Assembly: GCF_000091325.1 (NCBI RefSeq)
Contig: NC_014012.1
Span: forward strand, 3,418,500-3,482,499
DNA length: 64,000 nt
Direction: 5' to 3'
DNA from: Shewanella violacea DSS12
GTDB lineage: Bacteria > Pseudomonadota > Gammaproteobacteria > Enterobacterales > Shewanellaceae
This document shows positions 3,849 to 64,000 of this stretch, piece after piece (positions within the stretch are counted from its first letter, which is position 1; each line of letters opens with the position of its first letter). The notes below the pieces were generated by a model. It saw nothing but the letters and a program-made list of their open reading frames with translations. It ran no database searches and had not been told where the DNA came from. The position numbers were made by a program, and so were the translations under genes.

Positions 3849-4249
3849 TATGAACATCCTTTGTGGGTACATTTATCATGACTTGTTGAAATAAGTGACT
3901 GACGAGACATGAATGACTCCCTAGCCACTTGCAAGCATGTGTATTAGATAACTTTCAAGAGTGCATGTTAATAGTTGCAGAAATCATCAACAGGTCAATA
4001 CTGGAATTTAAAAATCAATAACGCCTACCAAGCTCTAAAAAGGCAGTAATATCAAACACAAAAGACAAAACAATGGATCGGAAAAAATGATAGTGAGCTA
4101 TCAGCCTGATTACTGAGGAGGTAAATTTAAGCCTGTACGGATAACGGGCCAGCAAGGTCAGATAAAAATAATGGCAGCCTCTAACCTAGAGATCTGCCAT
4201 TAATTAATGAAGTAAATAAGAGGTTATCTAGCCCTTGACCAGAGTTAAG
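3849..4249. other. Gene-free stretch upstream of the pilin genes
   Basis: About 400 AT-rich bases between the lipoprotein gene and the first pilin gene, both read leftward. I see no convincing open frame. It probably holds the pilin promoter and untranslated leader. An 18-base sequence at 4129-4146 (AAGCCTGTACGGATAACG) recurs at 41025-41042. Confidence 0.5.
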
Positions 4250-7063
4250 CTAGTAATCATATTTATCGATACGTCCATTGTTATCAATATCTTTATTACC
4301 ATCTATGGGCCCCCTATGATTGTGTTTATACTCTCCTATGATATTGCTATAGGGCGTGTAACGGCTGCCTGTATGGGCGCCTTGGTACAGATATTCAAAT
4401 GCATCATCGACATTGTCTCCATCACTGTCAGACAAGATAGGTTGTGAGCAGTATTCCACCTTATTATTGGCATACTTGCCAGGCAGATGGCTACACTCGT
4501 CGAGCTCCTGCTCGGTAGAAAAACCGTCATTATCTAGGTCCACCAGATCATGAAGCTCAGGCCTATCATCAAACTTATCTTCAGGGTACACACTTATGCC
4601 TGTGTCCTTGGCTGGCACCACGGCACCATTCATCTTAAAATCTAAGTAACTGCAACCCGATAGGATATAGGGATATGTTATATTTTCAGTGTCGGGATTG
4701 TGACACTCAAAAATTGAATCTACGCGTTTAAGTGGATTGATAAGATGCCAATGCTTTAAATTTTCACTTTTATAACCACGAGAAAAATACGTACTTTTAC
4801 CTTGCCCGCTAGTTTCGGTGCGAACGCTATAGGAGTTGGCCGAGTCACCTATGATATTACTTCTATATTCCTTCTCCTCCTCATGAAAACCAGCTTTAGT
4901 TAAGCTGAACAACTTATGTTTCATAAGCAGTAAAACCGCATTTGAGGTATTTTTATAAAATTTTACTTCACACTTATCTTTATGATGAATATCGTGAAAG
5001 TTCAGGGTTAAATCTAGCCACTTACCATCTGGTTGCTGTTCTCTGTGATACTGTGCGTAACCATCAAACTCTAATTCATCATCGTCATCATCGTGATCCC
5101 TGTCATCATCGTCGACTTGATGCATATAGGTGACAAAGTTAGGAGACTGCTGATAATCATTCACCCTAGTGGCCACTTTTTTGAACTTATATTTAGCACC
5201 GTCTCTGTTTTTACCCTCGAATAAAACGTACAGCTCCCCCTTGTTCGTTAACGCGGCAATTCCTGTCTGTACCTGGGTCGTTTTAACCGGAGTGAGATTA
5301 CGGTCATTAAACTCCTGGATAAAGTCTAAGTAGAAGTTATCTTTCCCCTTATCCTCTGGGGCACTATGATAAAAAAATGCATCGCCAGGCTCATCCGATG
5401 CCTTCATACAATAAAACGAGCCATGGCTCTTGGCATTCCAGCACTGCACTCGAGTATCTAGATAGGGAGTAAAGTCCCACTCATCTAAGGTTGCAGAGTA
5501 GCAATCTATGCCGTAATAAGTGGCGGTGCCATCGTTAAAATGTACCACCGCCGAGGTAATACCAAAACTCTCAACCGACGCGACATCGGACAGATGCAGC
5601 TGATTAAACTTATCGGTGAAAGCGGAGTAACATTGGTTAAATGTGCCAGATACTTGATTAATAGCACTAGACTCACCCGCTTCATTCACCACATAGATAA
5701 TGCCGCCATAGCCTAGGGCTCGGTCCGCATAGGTTAGGCCATAATAAACTCGGTCAGTTGCAGGTAGCACGACCAATGAGTCCGTAAAACCTTCGGCGCC
5801 GAAAAGAATAGTCTCCTTGGTATTTAACGATATTTGATAGTTACCAAAACCAATATTCTTAATGCCTGTCGCGTATCCCCCATTGTTTTCCATGTAAGGA
5901 ACAAGCTCATTTTTAAAGGGATTCATTAACTTATCATTGCCACCAGCCCCTAGTGTTCCGTCACCGAAGAGCTTTAAGAAACCATTATAAGAAAACTCAA
6001 TTTTCCCAGCTCTGCTCTCACCTGTGTTAAAGGTGATAGTCCCGGTACTGACACCATCCACCTCATGATCATAAACGGTGTAATTAACCACAAATTGACC
6101 AGGATTTTCAGCCTTAAAACTAAAGCGGGTATTGGATACATCATTTGGATTCACTAAGGCCACATTGGCGTTATAGACCTGAACGCCGACTAATTGAATC
6201 TGGTCACCCTCCTTGTCTGTGACTAAAGGGCCGACTCTGGGAAAGTTCATAATATCTACACTAATGAATTCACCCACAGGCACTAAGCGATCATAAGTCT
6301 CATCCAGTGTATGGGGCGCAGTATTGGTCTCTCCCGATACATCTATATTGATAACACCGGTAAATATCAGTTGGTTATCATCGATCACTGAATAGGTTAC
6401 CCTAGTTAAACCCAACTCAACGGCCCGGTAGCTAAAGTATCCCTCATCCGTGATATCTGCGGTGCCGCTTCCCATAACGACCGTAGAGGCTTCAAATTTA
6501 GGATTAGTCATAGGCAGAAATTCAGCGGCTAGCTCATCCTGAATGTTGAAGACAAGCGAGTTACCCACGGCGACAGATTTACTGAGTTCAGGCAGTAGAT
6601 TACCTAGAGGGATTTCAAGGCCCTGCTCTGCAGCCATCTGTTTAGCACTTTTAGAGATGAACACCACAGAAGCCAGGCCAGAGGCATGCTCTACTCCATC
6701 TGTAATGGTATATCGATAATCACAATTCACTGAGTTTTTTGGTGAAACGGAGAAATCCAAGCCTGTTTCGATGACTTCTACCACCCTGCAATCGGCTATA
6801 TTGCCAATTGCCTCTATGTTACTCAGAATCAGACTCTTACCCAGTTTAGAGCTGACATAGGTAGATAGATTAAAGGTCAATGATTGACCTATATCGTCAG
6901 GTAAGATCACTGACTTTCTAAAATCCATCGCAATCACAGTTTTCTCGACTGGAGGCGGTGGAGGAGGCGGTGGTGGCGCTATATCACCATCACTGTCTGA
7001 GCCTCCACAGGCGCTGAGCATTACGAGTGATAGTAATATGGATATGTGACAAAGAAATCTCAT
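4250..7063 (-). CDS. Large outer-membrane lipoprotein with calcium-binding repeats
   Basis: A 937-residue protein. The ATG at 7063 is preferred because GGGG lies seven bases before it; the ATG at 7075 has no ribosome site. A lipobox (LVMLSACGG) marks a lipidated N-terminal cysteine, followed by a linker with nine prolines. Residues about 45-340 look like tandem beta-sandwich (Ig or cadherin-like) modules. A very acidic segment (VDDDDRDHDDDDDELEF) lies near residue 660. The last 90 residues contain three DxDxDG-type calcium loops (DLDNDGFSTEQE, SDSDGDNVDDAFE, DIDNNGRIDKYDY), as in thrombospondin type 3 or dockerin-like repeats. It sits directly upstream of the pilin genes on the same strand and may be a surface adhesin or pilus-associated factor, but no known family was recognised. 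Confidence 0.6.
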   Translation of the reverse strand: MRFLCHISILLSLVMLSACGGSDSDGDIAPPPPPPPPPVEKTVIAMDFRKSVILPDDIGQSLTFNLSTYVSSKLGKSLILSNIEAIGNIADCRVVEVIETGLDFSVSPKNSVNCDYRYTITDGVEHASGLASVVFISKSAKQMAAEQGLEIPLGNLLPELSKSVAVGNSLVFNIQDELAAEFLPMTNPKFEASTVVMGSGTADITDEGYFSYRAVELGLTRVTYSVIDDNQLIFTGVINIDVSGETNTAPHTLDETYDRLVPVGEFISVDIMNFPRVGPLVTDKEGDQIQLVGVQVYNANVALVNPNDVSNTRFSFKAENPGQFVVNYTVYDHEVDGVSTGTITFNTGESRAGKIEFSYNGFLKLFGDGTLGAGGNDKLMNPFKNELVPYMENNGGYATGIKNIGFGNYQISLNTKETILFGAEGFTDSLVVLPATDRVYYGLTYADRALGYGGIIYVVNEAGESSAINQVSGTFNQCYSAFTDKFNQLHLSDVASVESFGITSAVVHFNDGTATYYGIDCYSATLDEWDFTPYLDTRVQCWNAKSHGSFYCMKASDEPGDAFFYHSAPEDKGKDNFYLDFIQEFNDRNLTPVKTTQVQTGIAALTNKGELYVLFEGKNRDGAKYKFKKVATRVNDYQQSPNFVTYMHQVDDDDRDHDDDDDELEFDGYAQYHREQQPDGKWLDLTLNFHDIHHKDKCEVKFYKNTSNAVLLLMKHKLFSLTKAGFHEEEKEYRSNIIGDSANSYSVRTETSGQGKSTYFSRGYKSENLKHWHLINPLKRVDSIFECHNPDTENITYPYILSGCSYLDFKMNGAVVPAKDTGISVYPEDKFDDRPELHDLVDLDNDGFSTEQELDECSHLPGKYANNKVEYCSQPILSDSDGDNVDDAFEYLYQGAHTGSRYTPYSNIIGEYKHNHRGPIDGNKDIDNNGRIDKYDY

Positions 7064-60123: not shown

Positions 60124-60912
60124 TTAATGAGAATGAAGAAATGCTGATATTGACTGATAATATGTAGCATGCTGGGAAATATCATTGTGGCCGGCACCTT
60201 GGATGAAGATAACCTCAGGAGCGCGATTTACCAATGCTTGTATAAGCTTGTCTGTGTGTATTCGGCGAACAATCTTGTCATACTCAGCCCCTAAAATTAG
60301 CGTGTCACAATAGATGTTCCCGGCGCGCGCTACCGAATTGAACTTGTCTTTGAGTAATATGGACATGGGGTAAAACGGAAATTGTTTTTGAGCAATACTT
60401 TGAATGCTGTCAAATGGGGTCACCAAGACTAACTTTTTCACCGGACGCTCCGATGCGATATAAGATGCAACACCGCTGCCTAAGCTTCTGCCTATCACGA
60501 ATACACTCTCATGAGTCAATGCCAGACTGTCATACATAGCCAAGGCATCAGACAATAATGCAGCTTCACTAGGTGAGCCCTCACTACTGGCATAACCTCT
60601 ATAATTAACTAGGTATACCGAATAAGCCGACAACTCTGGTTCTAATAATTCTGTTTCTAATAATGCTTGTTCAAATTCTGGTGCTGTAAAGGCAACATTT
60701 TCGGCGTTACCACCAAAATAGATAATCGCCTTATCCTGACCCTTGTTTAATAAGATACTTGTTGTGGAAACATCATCATTTTCAAATATCACTTCATCGA
60801 ACCTGTGCTCTACTACCTCTGTAGGAAAATAGATAAAGCTACGCTGCATCAAATAGAGCATCAGCCCTAATCCAACATAGATGACGATAACCAGTATTAA
60901 AATTCGATTCAT
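60124..60912 (-). CDS. Membrane-anchored alpha/beta hydrolase
   Basis: The ATG at 60912 opens a strong N-terminal helix (RILILVIVIYVGLGLMLYL) in a 262-residue protein. Next is YFPTEVVEHRFDEV. The hydrolase core has the nucleophile loop FVIGRSLGSGVASYIA near residue 130, Asp in DTLILGAEYDKIV and His in QGAGHNDISQH. It resembles the YfhR/BEM46-type serine hydrolases of the inner membrane. Substrate unknown. Confidence 0.82.
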   Translation of the reverse strand: MNRILILVIVIYVGLGLMLYLMQRSFIYFPTEVVEHRFDEVIFENDDVSTTSILLNKGQDKAIIYFGGNAENVAFTAPEFEQALLETELLEPELSAYSVYLVNYRGYASSEGSPSEAALLSDALAMYDSLALTHESVFVIGRSLGSGVASYIASERPVKKLVLVTPFDSIQSIAQKQFPFYPMSILLKDKFNSVARAGNIYCDTLILGAEYDKIVRRIHTDKLIQALVNRAPEVIFIQGAGHNDISQHATYYQSISAFLHSH

Positions 60913-61406
60913 ATTTTCATTTCCCAAAGGGGATAATCGCGTAGGAAACAGGCCAAGTTTCAAACCTGTTTAAGTTATTTCGCTTGGCTAAACAAGTATT
61001 CCCTCCTTAATCTTAACCCAAGATTGATTATTAATTGTGAGGTCTATTTTATTTTTTAGCCACTAGAAAGCTGACATTGCCACGTTTATCGTGAGTATCA
61101 GCACTGAGATTAGCGAATAGTCCATCGCAGAAATCTGGGGGGTCTTCATCTAAAAGCGCCCTTAGCTTTTTTCAAAGACGGTAAAAAACTGAGGGTTGGC
61201 ATTTAAGCTGCTAAACAAGACTAGATGAGCTATTTAAAAAAGCCGTTTTAAACTGACAGGGAGTTAAAACTAAAAGGAAGTATGTAAGTACTGACTAGCC
61301 GCATTAGGCATGCTGAATCGGCTATCTAGGAGAGAGCATCAATTCTGAAAAACTTTACTAAGCCAGCCATTAATAATAGTTGGCATGATTTATTTTCAGA
61401 CCTGAT
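60913..61406. other. Gap with a decayed coding remnant
   Basis: About 490 bases. Positions 61049-61200 hold a leftward coding remnant (separate entry); I see nothing certain in the rest. This is the border between the housekeeping genes and the cassette-like array. Confidence 0.5.
61049..61200 (-). pseudogene. C-terminal remnant of an unknown gene
   Basis: Leftward reading gives a peptide-like tail RALLDEDPPDFCDGLFANLS, then ADTHDKRGNVSFLVAKK and stop. Just before it, NPQFFTVFEK lies in another frame, with a stop and frameshift between. The tail is too well composed to be chance, but I cannot name the family. Confidence 0.45.
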
Positions 61407-62033
61407 TTATTTGCTAATTTTCCAATAATCATAAAGACCACTGATATCTGACGAGCACATTAAGCTCATTGCACCTTTAATTTTCTCGTCATTCCACAGC
61501 CACCATTTCATTTCTAGTAACTGAAGGATTTCACTTTCAGTAAAACGATAGCGGATATGTTTTGCAGGGTTTGAACCAACGATGGAGTAAGGCGCAACGT
61601 CTTTGGTTACGACAGCACGACTTGCAATAATAGCACCGTCACCCACTGTTACACCGCTCATGATCATGGCTTCAGTGCCTATCCAAACATCGTTACCAAT
61701 AAGGGTATCACCAGAGCGTTCAAAACCATCTTTAGCATCAGAGAAATTTTCATTATCTTGGTAGAAAAATGGGAATGTGCTAACCCAATTATTTTGATGT
61801 CCCTGATTGCCTGCCATCATAAATACAGCACCTGAGCCAATTGAACAGTAACTACCAATAATTAACTTATCAATATCACTTCTGTCAGCCAGCAGATAAC
61901 GTGCACATTCATCGAAGCTATGATTATGATAATAGCCGGAATAATAACTATGCTCACCCACTATGATATTAGGATTCGTCACCTGTTCTTTCAGTGACTT
62001 CCCGACGAAAGGACTTTCAAAATAATTGTTCAA
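61407..62033 (-). CDS. CatB-type O-acetyltransferase (cassette-like gene)
   Basis: A 208-residue xenobiotic acetyltransferase of the hexapeptide (left-handed beta-helix) family. Seen: [40 protein letters not shown], catalytic His in NQGHQNNW, and repeats [38 protein letters not shown] and [13 protein letters not shown]. These resemble CatB chloramphenicol and streptogramin acetyltransferases, typical passengers of chromosomal integrons. Whether it acts on antibiotics is unknown. An attC-like site lies just upstream. Confidence 0.88.
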
Positions 62034-62052
62034 CCTAAATCCTCTTTTGAGC

Positions 62053-62152
62053 TTATAACGCCCGCTTTGATGGGCAAGATAAAGCTGGCTAGAATAAGCG
62101 ACGAAAGAGAAAATGACAAGTGTACTTGCCTCTGTTTAACGGCTTGTTACGC
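62053..62152 (-). other. attC-like recombination site 1
   Basis: Read leftward it opens GCGTAACAAGCCGTTAAACA right after the HIT gene stop and closes GCCCATCAAAGCGGGCGTTA. These are the R''/L'' and L'/R' ends of integron attC sites of the Vibrio type. GGCAAG and CTTGCC pair inside. Length about 100 bases, in the usual range. Confidence 0.75.
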
Positions 62153-62153
62153 T

Positions 62154-62582
62154 TCAATCTGTCAGGCGAAATCCTGGCGCCCAACCTAGCTCTTTACCAC
62201 CTAAAACATGAATGTGCAGGTGATAAACAGATTGACCACCATAGGGATGTGTATTGATAATTATTCTAAAACCATCTTGAACTATACCGTTTTCTTTGGC
62301 TACTTTACGAGCCAGTGAAAACATCTCTCCAATTAGCGCTTCAGAAGCTTGAAGGATTGTTGGAACTCGTTCCTTAGGTATAACAAGTAGATGTACCGGG
62401 GCTTGAGGGTATTTTGATTTTATAACAAATGCATTTTCTGATTGAGCAAGCCATTCAGATTCAGGCTTAGACTCAAATACCGATGGTTTCGAATATAATA
62501 GTTCCAGTTGCTCGACACTTACATTCGCACTTAATGAATTTGATACTAAAATGCCGAATAGTAAAATTATTAATGATTTCAT
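62154..62582 (-). CDS. Exported HIT-family (HinT-like) protein
   Basis: A 142-residue protein from the ATG at 62582. It starts with a signal peptide (MKSLIILLFGILVSNSLSA), unusual for a family normally cytoplasmic. The HIT fold is clear: LLVIPKERVPTILQASEALI, GFRIIINTHPYGGQSVYHLHIHVLGGKELGW, with the HxHxH triad. HinT-type proteins hydrolyse nucleoside phosphoramidates and dinucleotides. Between attC-like sites on either side, so it looks like a gene cassette. Confidence 0.78.
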   Translation of the reverse strand: MKSLIILLFGILVSNSLSANVSVEQLELLYSKPSVFESKPESEWLAQSENAFVIKSKYPQAPVHLLVIPKERVPTILQASEALIGEMFSLARKVAKENGIVQDGFRIIINTHPYGGQSVYHLHIHVLGGKELGWAPGFRLTD

Positions 62583-62928
62583 ATAACTTCCATGTTGATG
62601 GCTATATTTAGATTTATAAAGGCTTGCTAGACACCGTTGATACGCTAACGCTCTAAAACCTAAAGAAAAAGTTAAGTAACAAACAGCCGACCCATTATTT
62701 ATTAATAACATACCCATCTTATGGGAAGTTATCAACTTCTCTAATTATCGATAAAGCTAATCAATAAGTTCAATAGCAGCTTTGAAGTCTGCAAATGCTG
62801 CACTGAGATGATTAATTAGGGGGATTACGCAATTTGACTATGGATGTAAGCATGATTAAGTGAGTTTTGGCTTGTGCAACACCTGAGATAGGCTCGCGTC
62901 TGCACGCGGCCTATCCTTACTATTGGCA
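62583..62928. other. Gap with a hairpin and a possible degenerate attC
   Basis: About 345 bases. A hairpin GATAGGCTCGCGT...ACGCGGCCTATC at 62887-62915 follows the upstream gene's stop and may be its terminator. Near 62640, leftward, GAGCGTTAGCG resembles the R' end of an attC, but the opposite end is not clear. No gene. Confidence 0.45.
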
Positions 62929-63366
62929 TTATTTTTTTGGAGACATTGCAGATTTTCTTGCTAGTTCTTTTATCTCATTGGTTATTTTATCATCAAAAGA
63001 AAACGAATATATTCGCCAACCTTCTTTAACTTTGAAAAATTGAAATTCATAACGTAAAGGCTGCCTGTCATAGGTAACAATATAAGTTATATGTACAAAA
63101 TATTCCCCGACAGTATACGTATCAAGTTTCCCTATATTATTGACGTTTCCCATCAGCCCCTTTAAGGATGTTAGTTGGTTTTTCACTTTTATTATTTGAT
63201 CGGGTATAGATGAAACGTATTCATTTGATTTATAGATCGAGTCTACTGCTTCGTTAATCCTGCCGATTTGATACAATTCAAAAAACTCATCTATTTCAGT
63301 TTGATAGTCATAAGCCATTGAATTAAATGAAAGCAGACTGGTTAGTAATAAAATTGAAAACTTCAT
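62929..63366 (-). CDS. Small exported protein of the cassette-like array
   Basis: The ATG at 63366 follows AGGAG by 12 bases and opens a signal peptide (FSILLLTSLLSFNSMA). The longer frame up to 63453 reads through the attC-like site and is not used. The 145 residues include DYQTEIDEFFELYQIGRINE, YFVHITYIVTYDRQPLRYEF and QFFKVKEGWRIYSFSFDDKI, a pattern like NTF2-like exported proteins. No named family. Cassette genes commonly code for such small orphans. Confidence 0.6.
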   Translation of the reverse strand: MKFSILLLTSLLSFNSMAYDYQTEIDEFFELYQIGRINEAVDSIYKSNEYVSSIPDQIIKVKNQLTSLKGLMGNVNNIGKLDTYTVGEYFVHITYIVTYDRQPLRYEFQFFKVKEGWRIYSFSFDDKITNEIKELARKSAMSPKK

Positions 63367-63389
63367 ATTTTTATATAACTCCTGTAATA

Positions 63390-63494
63390 CTAACGCCCTA
63401 ATAATGGGCAAACAATTGCAGGCTAAAGTGCACGAGCAACGAGTAGTAGCCAACTGTTATTTCTCCGTTTATGTAACTTGCTACATGGTTACGG
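63390..63494 (-). other. attC-like recombination site 2
   Basis: Read leftward: GCCGTAAC starts in the stop codon of the hydrolase gene, followed by AACAGTTGGCTACTAC and TTTAGCCTGCAATTGTTT arms that pair through GGCTA/TAGCC and AACA/TGTT, and it ends GCCCATTATTAGGGCGTTAG. Layout and length (about 105 bases) match chromosomal integron attC sites and share TAACGCCC...TGGGC with site 1. Confidence 0.75.
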
Positions 63495-64000
63495 CGTTAA
63501 GGTTTTTAACAATGATTTATAGAATCTAATATCCTCGCTATTTTGAGCCAGTTTAACCGCTTTTTCTGCGTAGATTATCGCAAGCGCATGTTTACCTGCT
63601 TGTGTATATGCTTTTGATAGCTGACTATATATCCTAGGTGAGTAGGGATAATATTCAACTGCAAGCTGTAGCCAAGGTATTAATTTTTCAATTCTATTTT
63701 GTCTATATAGTATCTCTGCTGTTTTAATAATATTATGAATAGAGTTAAAAGATTTTTCTAACGGAATAATTTCAAATCCATAATGCTCAGACAGTTGTTG
63801 ATACCGATCCGATAATGCTTGTGCGGGATCTTGGCTATTCCACATTTTTCTGTAGTCTATATTCCAGATTTCTCGAGCGTAAATGGTTTCTAAGCCATGC
63901 TGTATACCTGGAATTGACATACCGTAGTGGTCTTCTTCATGAATGACTTCAAACTTATATCTAATTTTTGGATTTGCAATATTCTTTAACTTTTTGGGGA
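63489..64000 (-). CDS. Esterase-type alpha/beta hydrolase with C-terminal TPR, 5' part outside window
   Basis: The frame is open to the window edge with no start, so only the C-terminal 169 residues are seen. RYKFEVIHEEDHYGMSIPGIQHGLETIY is the segment with the catalytic His of the IroE/ferri-enterobactin-esterase type (EDH...). It is followed by TPR-like helices (RIYSQLSKAYTQAGKHALAIIYAEKAVKL). Shewanella proteins with this make-up are predicted hydrolases of unknown substrate. Its stop lies in an attC-like site, so it may itself be a cassette gene. Confidence 0.68.
   Translation of the reverse strand, partial: PKKLKNIANPKIRYKFEVIHEEDHYGMSIPGIQHGLETIYAREIWNIDYRKMWNSQDPAQALSDRYQQLSEHYGFEIIPLEKSFNSIHNIIKTAEILYRQNRIEKLIPWLQLAVEYYPYSPRIYSQLSKAYTQAGKHALAIIYAEKAVKLAQNSEDIRFYKSLLKTLTP

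What the first reader, a model, noticed from the sequence alone, without database searches (positions are those of the whole stretch)
61407..63920. attC-like sites: an integron cassette array lacking an integrase
At least two approximately 100-bp sites (62053-62152 and 63390-63494) share the ends GTAAC... and ...GGGCGTTA and the inner TAACGCCC...TGGGC signature. They separate four leftward genes: CatB-type acetyltransferase, exported HIT protein, small exported protein and an esterase. Gene content is typical of Vibrio- and Shewanella-type chromosomal integrons. No intI is visible in the window, so it may be a CALIN (cluster of attC lacking integrase) or the edge of a larger array that lies to the right. 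The cassettes hold functions not previously linked to this locus, notably a secreted HIT enzyme.
Basis: partly seen in the sequence, partly recalled or inferred. Interest (0 to 1): 0.72.

Follow-up and report, generated by a model that had tools for sequence, protein, structure and literature searches.

The report
Decayed integron remnant without its integrase
This is a short, decaying row of captured genes left over from a bacterial gene-capture system (an integron) that has lost its capture enzyme; such leftovers are already known in this group of bacteria, but this one also carries a scar from a mobile element that appears to insert specifically into integron recombination sites.

Summary
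The two sites are real attC sites. A covariance model trained on six other attC sites of this genome finds both genome-wide (63390-63484, E 5e-12; 62055-62150, E 3.5e-4). No intact intI was found in the chromosome, only two distant fragments. So the block is an integrase-less array, a kind already reported in most Shewanella strains (PMC9229058).

Corrections: the sites divide the genes into three blocks, not four; site 2's R'' core is mutated, and both sites fold worse (z-score) than the six reference sites; the array does not continue far right. It starts at 64755-64969 with a decayed copy of the LexA-box/attI spacer that lies beside intact intI in a congener. Seven sampled relatives show no attC beside the same flank gene.

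Between the small exported gene and HIT, where an attC is expected, lies a relic (62869-62919) of one end of an int+IS91-transposase element. The recombinase-side end of such elements abuts attC R'' at one constant offset in 23 of 30 genus loci and 19 of 24 order loci; one copy lies within an aadA1 attC on an E. coli plasmid. That specificity is the interesting by-product.

The parts
60124..60912 (-). left flanking gene, alpha/beta hydrolase (Abhydrolase_1), conserved in congeners; not a cassette
   Evidence: Pfam 1.6e-10; similar DNA in seven fetched relatives
61050..61174 (-). 3' stub of a methyltransferase gene that is longer at this spot in relatives; left border of the array
   Evidence: DNA similarity stops at 61171-61174 in four of the seven fetched relatives (L169, L170, L171, L173); the L171 gene is a methyltransferase
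61407..62033 (-). CatB-type chloramphenicol O-acetyltransferase gene (last cassette); no attC detected downstream
   Evidence: NF000490 372 bits over cut-off 350; Hexapep; best R1 match within 61000-61407 has E 6.4
62055..62150 (-). attC site 1 (s1)
   Evidence: R1 30.8 bits, E 3.5e-4 genome-wide, 4.4e-6 window; folding z -1.03
62154..62582 (-). HIT-domain gene with a signal-peptide-like N-terminus (142 aa)
   Evidence: Pfam HIT 3.1e-21; only HIT-domain matches of 51% identity or less in congeners
62681..62820 (-). repeated promoter-like block upstream of the HIT gene; six other copies seen in fetched stretches of the same genome
   Evidence: BLAST and alignment; TTGATA-17-TATGTT match at 62735-62707 (the scan as a whole found about as many promoter-like sites as shuffles). 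Role unknown
62869..62919 (+). relic of the far end of an int+IS91-type element that inserts into attC R''; sits where the attC of the small gene's cassette is expected
   Evidence: 84% over 51 nt, E 2.4e-9 genome-wide, the weakest of 8 copies; stem-loop z -3.0; ends of intact copies
62929..63366 (-). small exported protein gene (145 aa), no known family
   Evidence: no Pfam, NCBIfam or PADLOC match; weak matches in 2 of 128 other species
63390..63484 (-). attC site 2 (s2), R'' core mutated (TAGC)
   Evidence: R1 57.8 bits, E 5e-12 genome-wide; folding z +0.30
63489..64000 (-). 3' part of first cassette gene, esterase with TPR tail; continues to window coordinate 64724. Beyond it, at 64755-64969, lies the attI-type leader
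   Evidence: Pfam Esterase 1.3e-13 on the 411-aa protein; leader

Best explanation
The block is the remnant of a chromosomal integron. Most likely IntI once added cassettes at an attI site (now decayed, window coordinates 64755-64969), giving the order attI - esterase - attC(s2) - small exported gene - [attC lost] - HIT - attC(s1) - CatB. intI is gone from this spot. The attC of the small gene's cassette was hit by an int+IS91-type element that uses attC R'' as its insertion site; most of that element, and of that attC, was later lost, leaving a 51-nt end. With no IntI the array is frozen and its sites drift. Shown: attC identity by covariance model, no intact intI found, similarity of the leader to an intact intI-attI spacer in a congener, the relic end, and no attC at this spot in the sampled relatives. 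Inferred: the order of events, and that IntI inserted these particular cassettes.
For: attC; control. Genus context: R1 attC in 125 of 129 genomes, intI at E 1e-40 in 85 of 129, R1 attC in 17 of 20 fetched intI stretches. No intact intI here; fragments at L022:3643-4088 (N-terminal part) and L024:6899-7084 (C-terminal part), none in the window or L017. attI-type leader: copies at the start of 6 of 11 own attC clusters; 77% over 293 bp between the L022 copy and the spacer beside an intact intI in G001; the window array's copy scores 63 against that spacer, best of 300 shuffles 43. Relic end. Site occupied otherwise in relatives.
Against: The window array's own leader is weak (80% over 51 nt to the L023 copy) and lacks the LexA-like box; of the seven leader copies scanned only L022 and G001 have a perfect one. 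Six attI-type leaders in one genome is unusual and unexplained. The two sites do not fold better than shuffles. The small gene and HIT could be one two-gene cassette; such cassettes are reported in Shewanella (PMC9229058, section 3.4 read). CatB has no attC of its own: of six fetched congener CatB stretches (L176-L181) four show no R1 attC, L181 one weak match 1.5 kb away, and only L177 (beside an intI) an array upstream, so CatB may have come otherwise. In G087 the same breakpoint before CatB lies next to a related int+IS91 pair, so that breakpoint does not prove an IntI event.
Confidence: 0.85

Rival explanations
1. Cassettes were inserted one by one at a chance secondary site by an IntI acting in trans, so the block never was an integron (a CALIN in the strict sense).
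For: Single attC sites and small clusters are scattered over 11 places in the genome; for 5 of the 11 clusters no leader was found in the fetched stretches.
Against: The array starts at an attI-type leader alignable over about 215 nt to the spacer of an intact integron.
Confidence: 0.1
2. The whole block was carried to this spot as one piece by recombination or by a mobile element, together with a truncated attI leader, after intI had been lost elsewhere. This is a variant of the best explanation and overlaps with it.
For: Leader copies in L023, L025 and in G068 (L037) share sequence to the left of the LexA-like box that matches no intI, so intI-less leader-plus-cassette units have been copied at least there. 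The left border cuts a methyltransferase gene.
Against: No transposase gene was seen at the borders of the window array; terminal repeats were not searched for. Its own leader does not show that left extension.
Confidence: 0.35
3. The sites are REP-like or terminator-like repeats, not attC.
For: A REP-like palindrome does occur here (62869-62919), a terminator-like match falls in each site, and folding alone gives no support.
Against: Sequence plus covariation match attC and the same model marks sites in 17 of 20 intI stretches.
Confidence: 0.02

Closest known systems
CALIN / SALIN elements of Shewanella (PMC9229058)
   Same: attC clusters without intI scattered on the chromosome; that paper counts 26 complete genomes with CALINs and no intI, and 115 single orphan cassettes (section 3.4 read)
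   Different: here an attI-type leader is kept at the array start and a mobile-element scar stands where one attC is expected
Sedentary chromosomal integrons of Shewanella and Vibrio (recalled)
   Same: attC type, attI and LexA-box spacer, mixed cassette functions
   Different: no functional intI; decayed sites; few cassettes
attC-invading elements: IS1111 family and class C-attC group II introns (both named in PMC9229058, section 3.4)
   Same: insertion into attC
   Different: the element here pairs a tyrosine recombinase with an IS91-type transposase and abuts the R'' core
ISShvi3, IS91-like element next to an attC (PMC9229058)
   Same: IS91-like, adjacent to attC in Shewanella
   Different: one case described there, with the statement that no IS was seen interrupting attC; whether ISShvi3 belongs to the same family was not tested

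Membership tests
CALIN (cluster of attC lacking integrase) | at least two attC sites close together | tested here: met
CALIN (cluster of attC lacking integrase) | no integron integrase nearby | tested here: met
   none intact in the single-contig chromosome; no intI fragment in window or L017 by tblastn with ten query frames taken from congener intI loci, of which one (L042) is by eye not an IntI
Complete integron | functional intI next to attI | tested here: not met
Complete integron | attI site at the start of the array | tested here: inconclusive
   decayed attI-type leader by similarity; activity not testable
attC site | R'' and R' cores with paired L''/L' arms | tested here: met
   covariance match; s1 cores intact, s2 R'' core mutated; several non-standard pairs in both
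attC site | stable single-strand hairpin | tested here: inconclusive
   s1 z -1.03, s2 z +0.30 against shuffles; six reference sites -1.53 to -3.39
attC site | recombination by IntI | not testable with these tools
   needs an excision or integration assay
attC site (IntegronFinder model) | hit to the published attC covariance model | not tested
   the model was not available; the Rfam scan of the window gave 0 matches
IS91-family element | IS91-type (HUH) transposase | tested here: met
   NF033538 362 bits over cut-off 125 for the intact own copy in L023; the window relic itself carries no gene

The most novel reading that the evidence does not exclude
A family of mobile elements made of a XerC/D-like tyrosine recombinase and an IS91-type transposase uses integron attC sites as its insertion target. 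It enters at the R'' core, so that the cassette gene ends up on one side and the body of its attC on the other, with the triplet GTT at both junctions. Its recombinase gene was found in ten sampled genera of the order (own included), and an R1 attC exactly at the junction in seven of these. One copy lies within the aadA1 attC of a class 1-type integron on an E. coli IncC plasmid, and the window holds a fossil end. Such an element would disable cassettes, and with its transposase might move attC arrays without IntI.
Probability: 0.85. Interest if true: 0.7.

Novelty: new member of a known kind. Interest (0 to 1): 0.42.

Why it matters
The array itself is one more example of a known kind, but it shows how an integron may die: the integrase is lost, attI and attC drift, and an attC-seeking element scars the array. 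The attC-targeting int+IS91 element, if confirmed, would be a further class of integron parasite beside the IS1111-type elements and class C-attC group II introns. It has reached a class 1-type integron with resistance cassettes on an E. coli plasmid, and it offers a concrete test of how arrays are disrupted or scattered without IntI.

Tried and rejected
Rfam at gathering scores: no match in the window. Folding alone does not support the two sites (z -1.03 and +0.30; plus strands -0.21 and +0.36), so the case rests on the covariance model and context. A third attC in 61000-64000: none. Azotobacter HIT relative (L089, 52%) as a cassette: a simple scan found no RYYYAAC/GTTRRRY pair there, but the same strict scan also missed the known own attC sites, so this is inconclusive. 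HIT as a defence gene: only a weak ThsC/HIT-domain match (PADLOC 2.4e-7); not pursued. On plasmids: HIT only as matches under 60% in 31 records, those listed mostly hinT; small protein none; CatB DNA at 60-80% in 1883 records, e.g. catB11 at 67%; esterase not searched. The int-side end of the element in the window: 3 matches with 2 mismatches against 3.55 expected by chance, none near the array. One exact pattern of the element end in viral contigs: none. Named positive control pS19502: record not held; on S. decolorationis pNi1-3 R1 gave one weak match near intI (20.1 bits), so R1 is tuned to this genus' common attC type and may miss others. Vibrionaceae plasmid copies: five fetched, four read; R1 marked an attC at the junction in 1 of the 4 (L279); L277 looks VCR-like by eye; L276 and L280 were not recognised. 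R1 misses at junctions: genus set L186, L194, L200, L205, L209, L215 (end present) and L196 (end absent); order set L239, L248, L250 (end present) and L242, L252 (end absent). By eye L186, L194, L200 and L215 also look like attC starts, but I do not count them. Rows dropped before the count: opposite-strand copies of counted sites (5 of 36; 5 of 35) and three rows with E above 0.01.

Full report
What was checked. The window is bases 3418500-3482499 of a single-contig 4.96-Mb chromosome. The region 61407-63998 holds four leftward reading frames: a CatB-type acetyltransferase, a HIT-domain protein, a 145-aa protein without known family, and the end of an esterase whose gene continues to window coordinate 64724. 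"Exported" rests on N-termini read by eye.

The attC sites. BLAST with site 2 found similar ~95-bp sites elsewhere in the chromosome. Six of these, without the two window sites, were aligned. A hairpin typical of attC fits them, with changes on both sides at 6 of 30 pairs (10 cells; shuffles reached 10 cells in 0 of 500 and 6 pairs in 9 of 500). A covariance model, R1, was built. In the whole chromosome R1 finds both window sites (57.8 bits, E 5.1e-12; 30.8 bits, E 3.5e-4). With the two extra sites seen in fetched stretches I count 26 sites in 11 clusters, the training sites included; strand duplicates were dropped and one partial match (4134953) is included. With filters off there is no third site in 61000-64000. 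Twenty-five control loci of the genus gave none. The window sites look degraded: single-strand folding z -1.03 and +0.30 against -1.53 to -3.39 for the six others, and the R'' core of site 2 reads TAGC.

No intact integrase. The integron-integrase model scores at most 87 bits in this chromosome against a cut-off of 265. In the genus-wide search this genome has no match at 1e-40, while 85 of 129 genomes do, 77 over the cut-off. R1 sites occur in 125 of 129 genomes and in 17 of 20 intI stretches that I fetched (the other three, L258, L261 and L272, are 1.3 to 3.6 kb long). An N-terminal intI fragment lies at L022:3643-4088 (best query 53% and 71% identity in two pieces) and a C-terminal fragment at L024:6899-7084 (up to 86% over 28 aa), 1.6 Mb apart; none was found in the window or L017.

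The array start. Just right of the window a leader precedes the first cassette gene. Related leaders stand before the first cassette in 6 of the 11 own clusters, and in one congener locus, G068. The best-preserved copy (L022) is 77% identical over 293 bp to the spacer beside an intact intI in G001; both hold a CTG-N10-CAG LexA-like box, which the five other copies scanned lack. The copy of the window array aligns to the G001 spacer over about 215 nt, score 63 against a best of 43 in 300 shuffles. I read these leaders as PintI/attI remnants. Why there are six is unexplained. A 2026 paper describes delta-attI-type gene cassettes in mobile integrons (PMC12901181; only the start of its abstract seen in the listing); whether that applies here was not tested.

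The place in the chromosome. The left flank gene is syntenic in relatives. Similarity stops at 61171-61174 in L169, L170, L171 and L173, and the stub there is the end of a gene that in L171 is a methyltransferase (Pfam); L169 and L175 hold similar frames. Of the seven relatives fetched for this flank, six (G014, G028, G015, G073, G095, G086) have both flanks in the stretch; between them lie other genes (methyltransferase, HipA, a TPR/cytochrome-c-like protein, VOC and GNAT proteins). In the seventh, G074, the right flank was not matched in the fetched stretch. R1 finds no attC in any of the seven. The HIT gene has no clear ortholog in the genus: the matches in other species reach 51% identity or less over the domain. 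The small protein and the esterase each have weak matches in 2 of 128 other species. CatB relatives are common; the closest, 86% at DNA level, is in G087.

The scar. At 62869-62919, just after the stop codon of the small gene, lies a 51-nt stem-loop, the most diverged of 8 copies in the genome (84%, E 2.4e-9). In intact own copies this is the far end of a ~2.38-kb element that encodes a 296-aa tyrosine recombinase and a 375-aa IS91-type transposase. The other end, GAACGAAGCCGC, abuts an attC. R1 marks an attC whose R'' edge lies at one and the same offset from that end in 23 of 30 genus loci and in 19 of 24 loci from other genera of the order. The loci were the ones returned for the recombinase: it matches in 24 of 129 genomes of the genus, own included, and in 29 of 394 genomes and 10 of 114 genera of the order sample, own included; the 19 loci fall in six other genera. 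The transposase was matched in 21 of the 23 order loci that contain the start of int. The far end was found in 23 of 32 examined loci, and the flank after it begins GTTA in all 23. Two own copies are 99.96% identical over 2390 bp, yet the sequences beyond the junction differ; so the attC is the target and not part of the element. On the E. coli IncC plasmid RCS41_p an 85%-identical recombinase lies between aadA1 and qacEdelta1, and the junctions fall within the aadA1 attC (the identity of that attC is recalled, and R1 gives only 17.9 bits, E 0.034, there). Against: on four Vibrionaceae plasmid copies read, R1 marked an attC at the junction in one.

How it works, most likely. The array was built by IntI at attI and is now frozen. 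Which of the two enzymes of the element makes the insertion is not shown; the constant position and the GTT triplet at both junctions fit site-specific recombination, while an IS91-type preference for CTTG or GTTC (recalled) would also fit the common CTTG before the element.

Organism. The genus was not named by any search on the genome itself. An IntI of congener G012 is 91.5% identical to IntI of Shewanella decolorationis and S. xiamenensis plasmids, so I infer Shewanella.

Known or new. CALINs in Shewanella are published (PMC9229058, section 3.4 read; further passages). The same section mentions one IS91-like element, ISShvi3, adjacent to an attC, and says no IS was found interrupting attC. 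My searches for attC-targeting IS91-type elements showed me no other description in the open-access library; passages were read in PMC9345347 and PMC8876359, and the rest were seen only as listings. Subscription journals and ISfinder were not searched.

Noticed in passing
L022:6470-8834, L023:4000-6366, fragments in L018 and L024; genus loci L186-L215; order loci L231-L254: int + IS91-type transposase element whose int-side end abuts attC R'' at a constant offset (23 of 30 and 19 of 24 loci).
   Followed up: partly
L230 (E. coli plasmid RCS41_p, NZ_LT985243.1): A copy of that element lies within the aadA1 attC of a class 1-type integron, between aadA1 and qacEdelta1.
   Followed up: partly
L017:755-969, L022, L023, L025, L026, L185: Six attI-type leaders in one genome without an intact intI; two of them (L023, L025) and one in G068 share further sequence on the left that matches no intI.
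   Followed up: partly
L022:3643-4088 and L024:6899-7084: N-terminal and C-terminal intI fragments 1.6 Mb apart, possibly halves of one gene split by a rearrangement.
   Followed up: no
window 62681-62820; L020:4241-4357; L027; L028: Repeated block TTGATAACTT...GGTATGTTATTGATTAACAATGGG upstream of HIT and of several other orphan genes, promoter-like.
   Followed up: partly
L018:9076-10056, L022:9824-10804, L024:643-1620: Transposase with a weak, below-cut-off match to REP-associated tyrosine transposases (L022 copy), found near remnants or ends of the int+IS91 element.
   Followed up: no
L176:15566-17860 (congener G087): A second, diverged int + IS91-like pair (by eye) directly upstream of the CatB gene; the sequence before CatB changes exactly at the attC R' crossover point, and the DNA after CatB looks intron-like by eye.
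   Followed up: no
L027:2141-2626 and 3860-4486: Repeated fragments that look like biotin carboxylase by eye, with small orphan genes between them, several preceded by the repeated promoter-like block.
   Followed up: no
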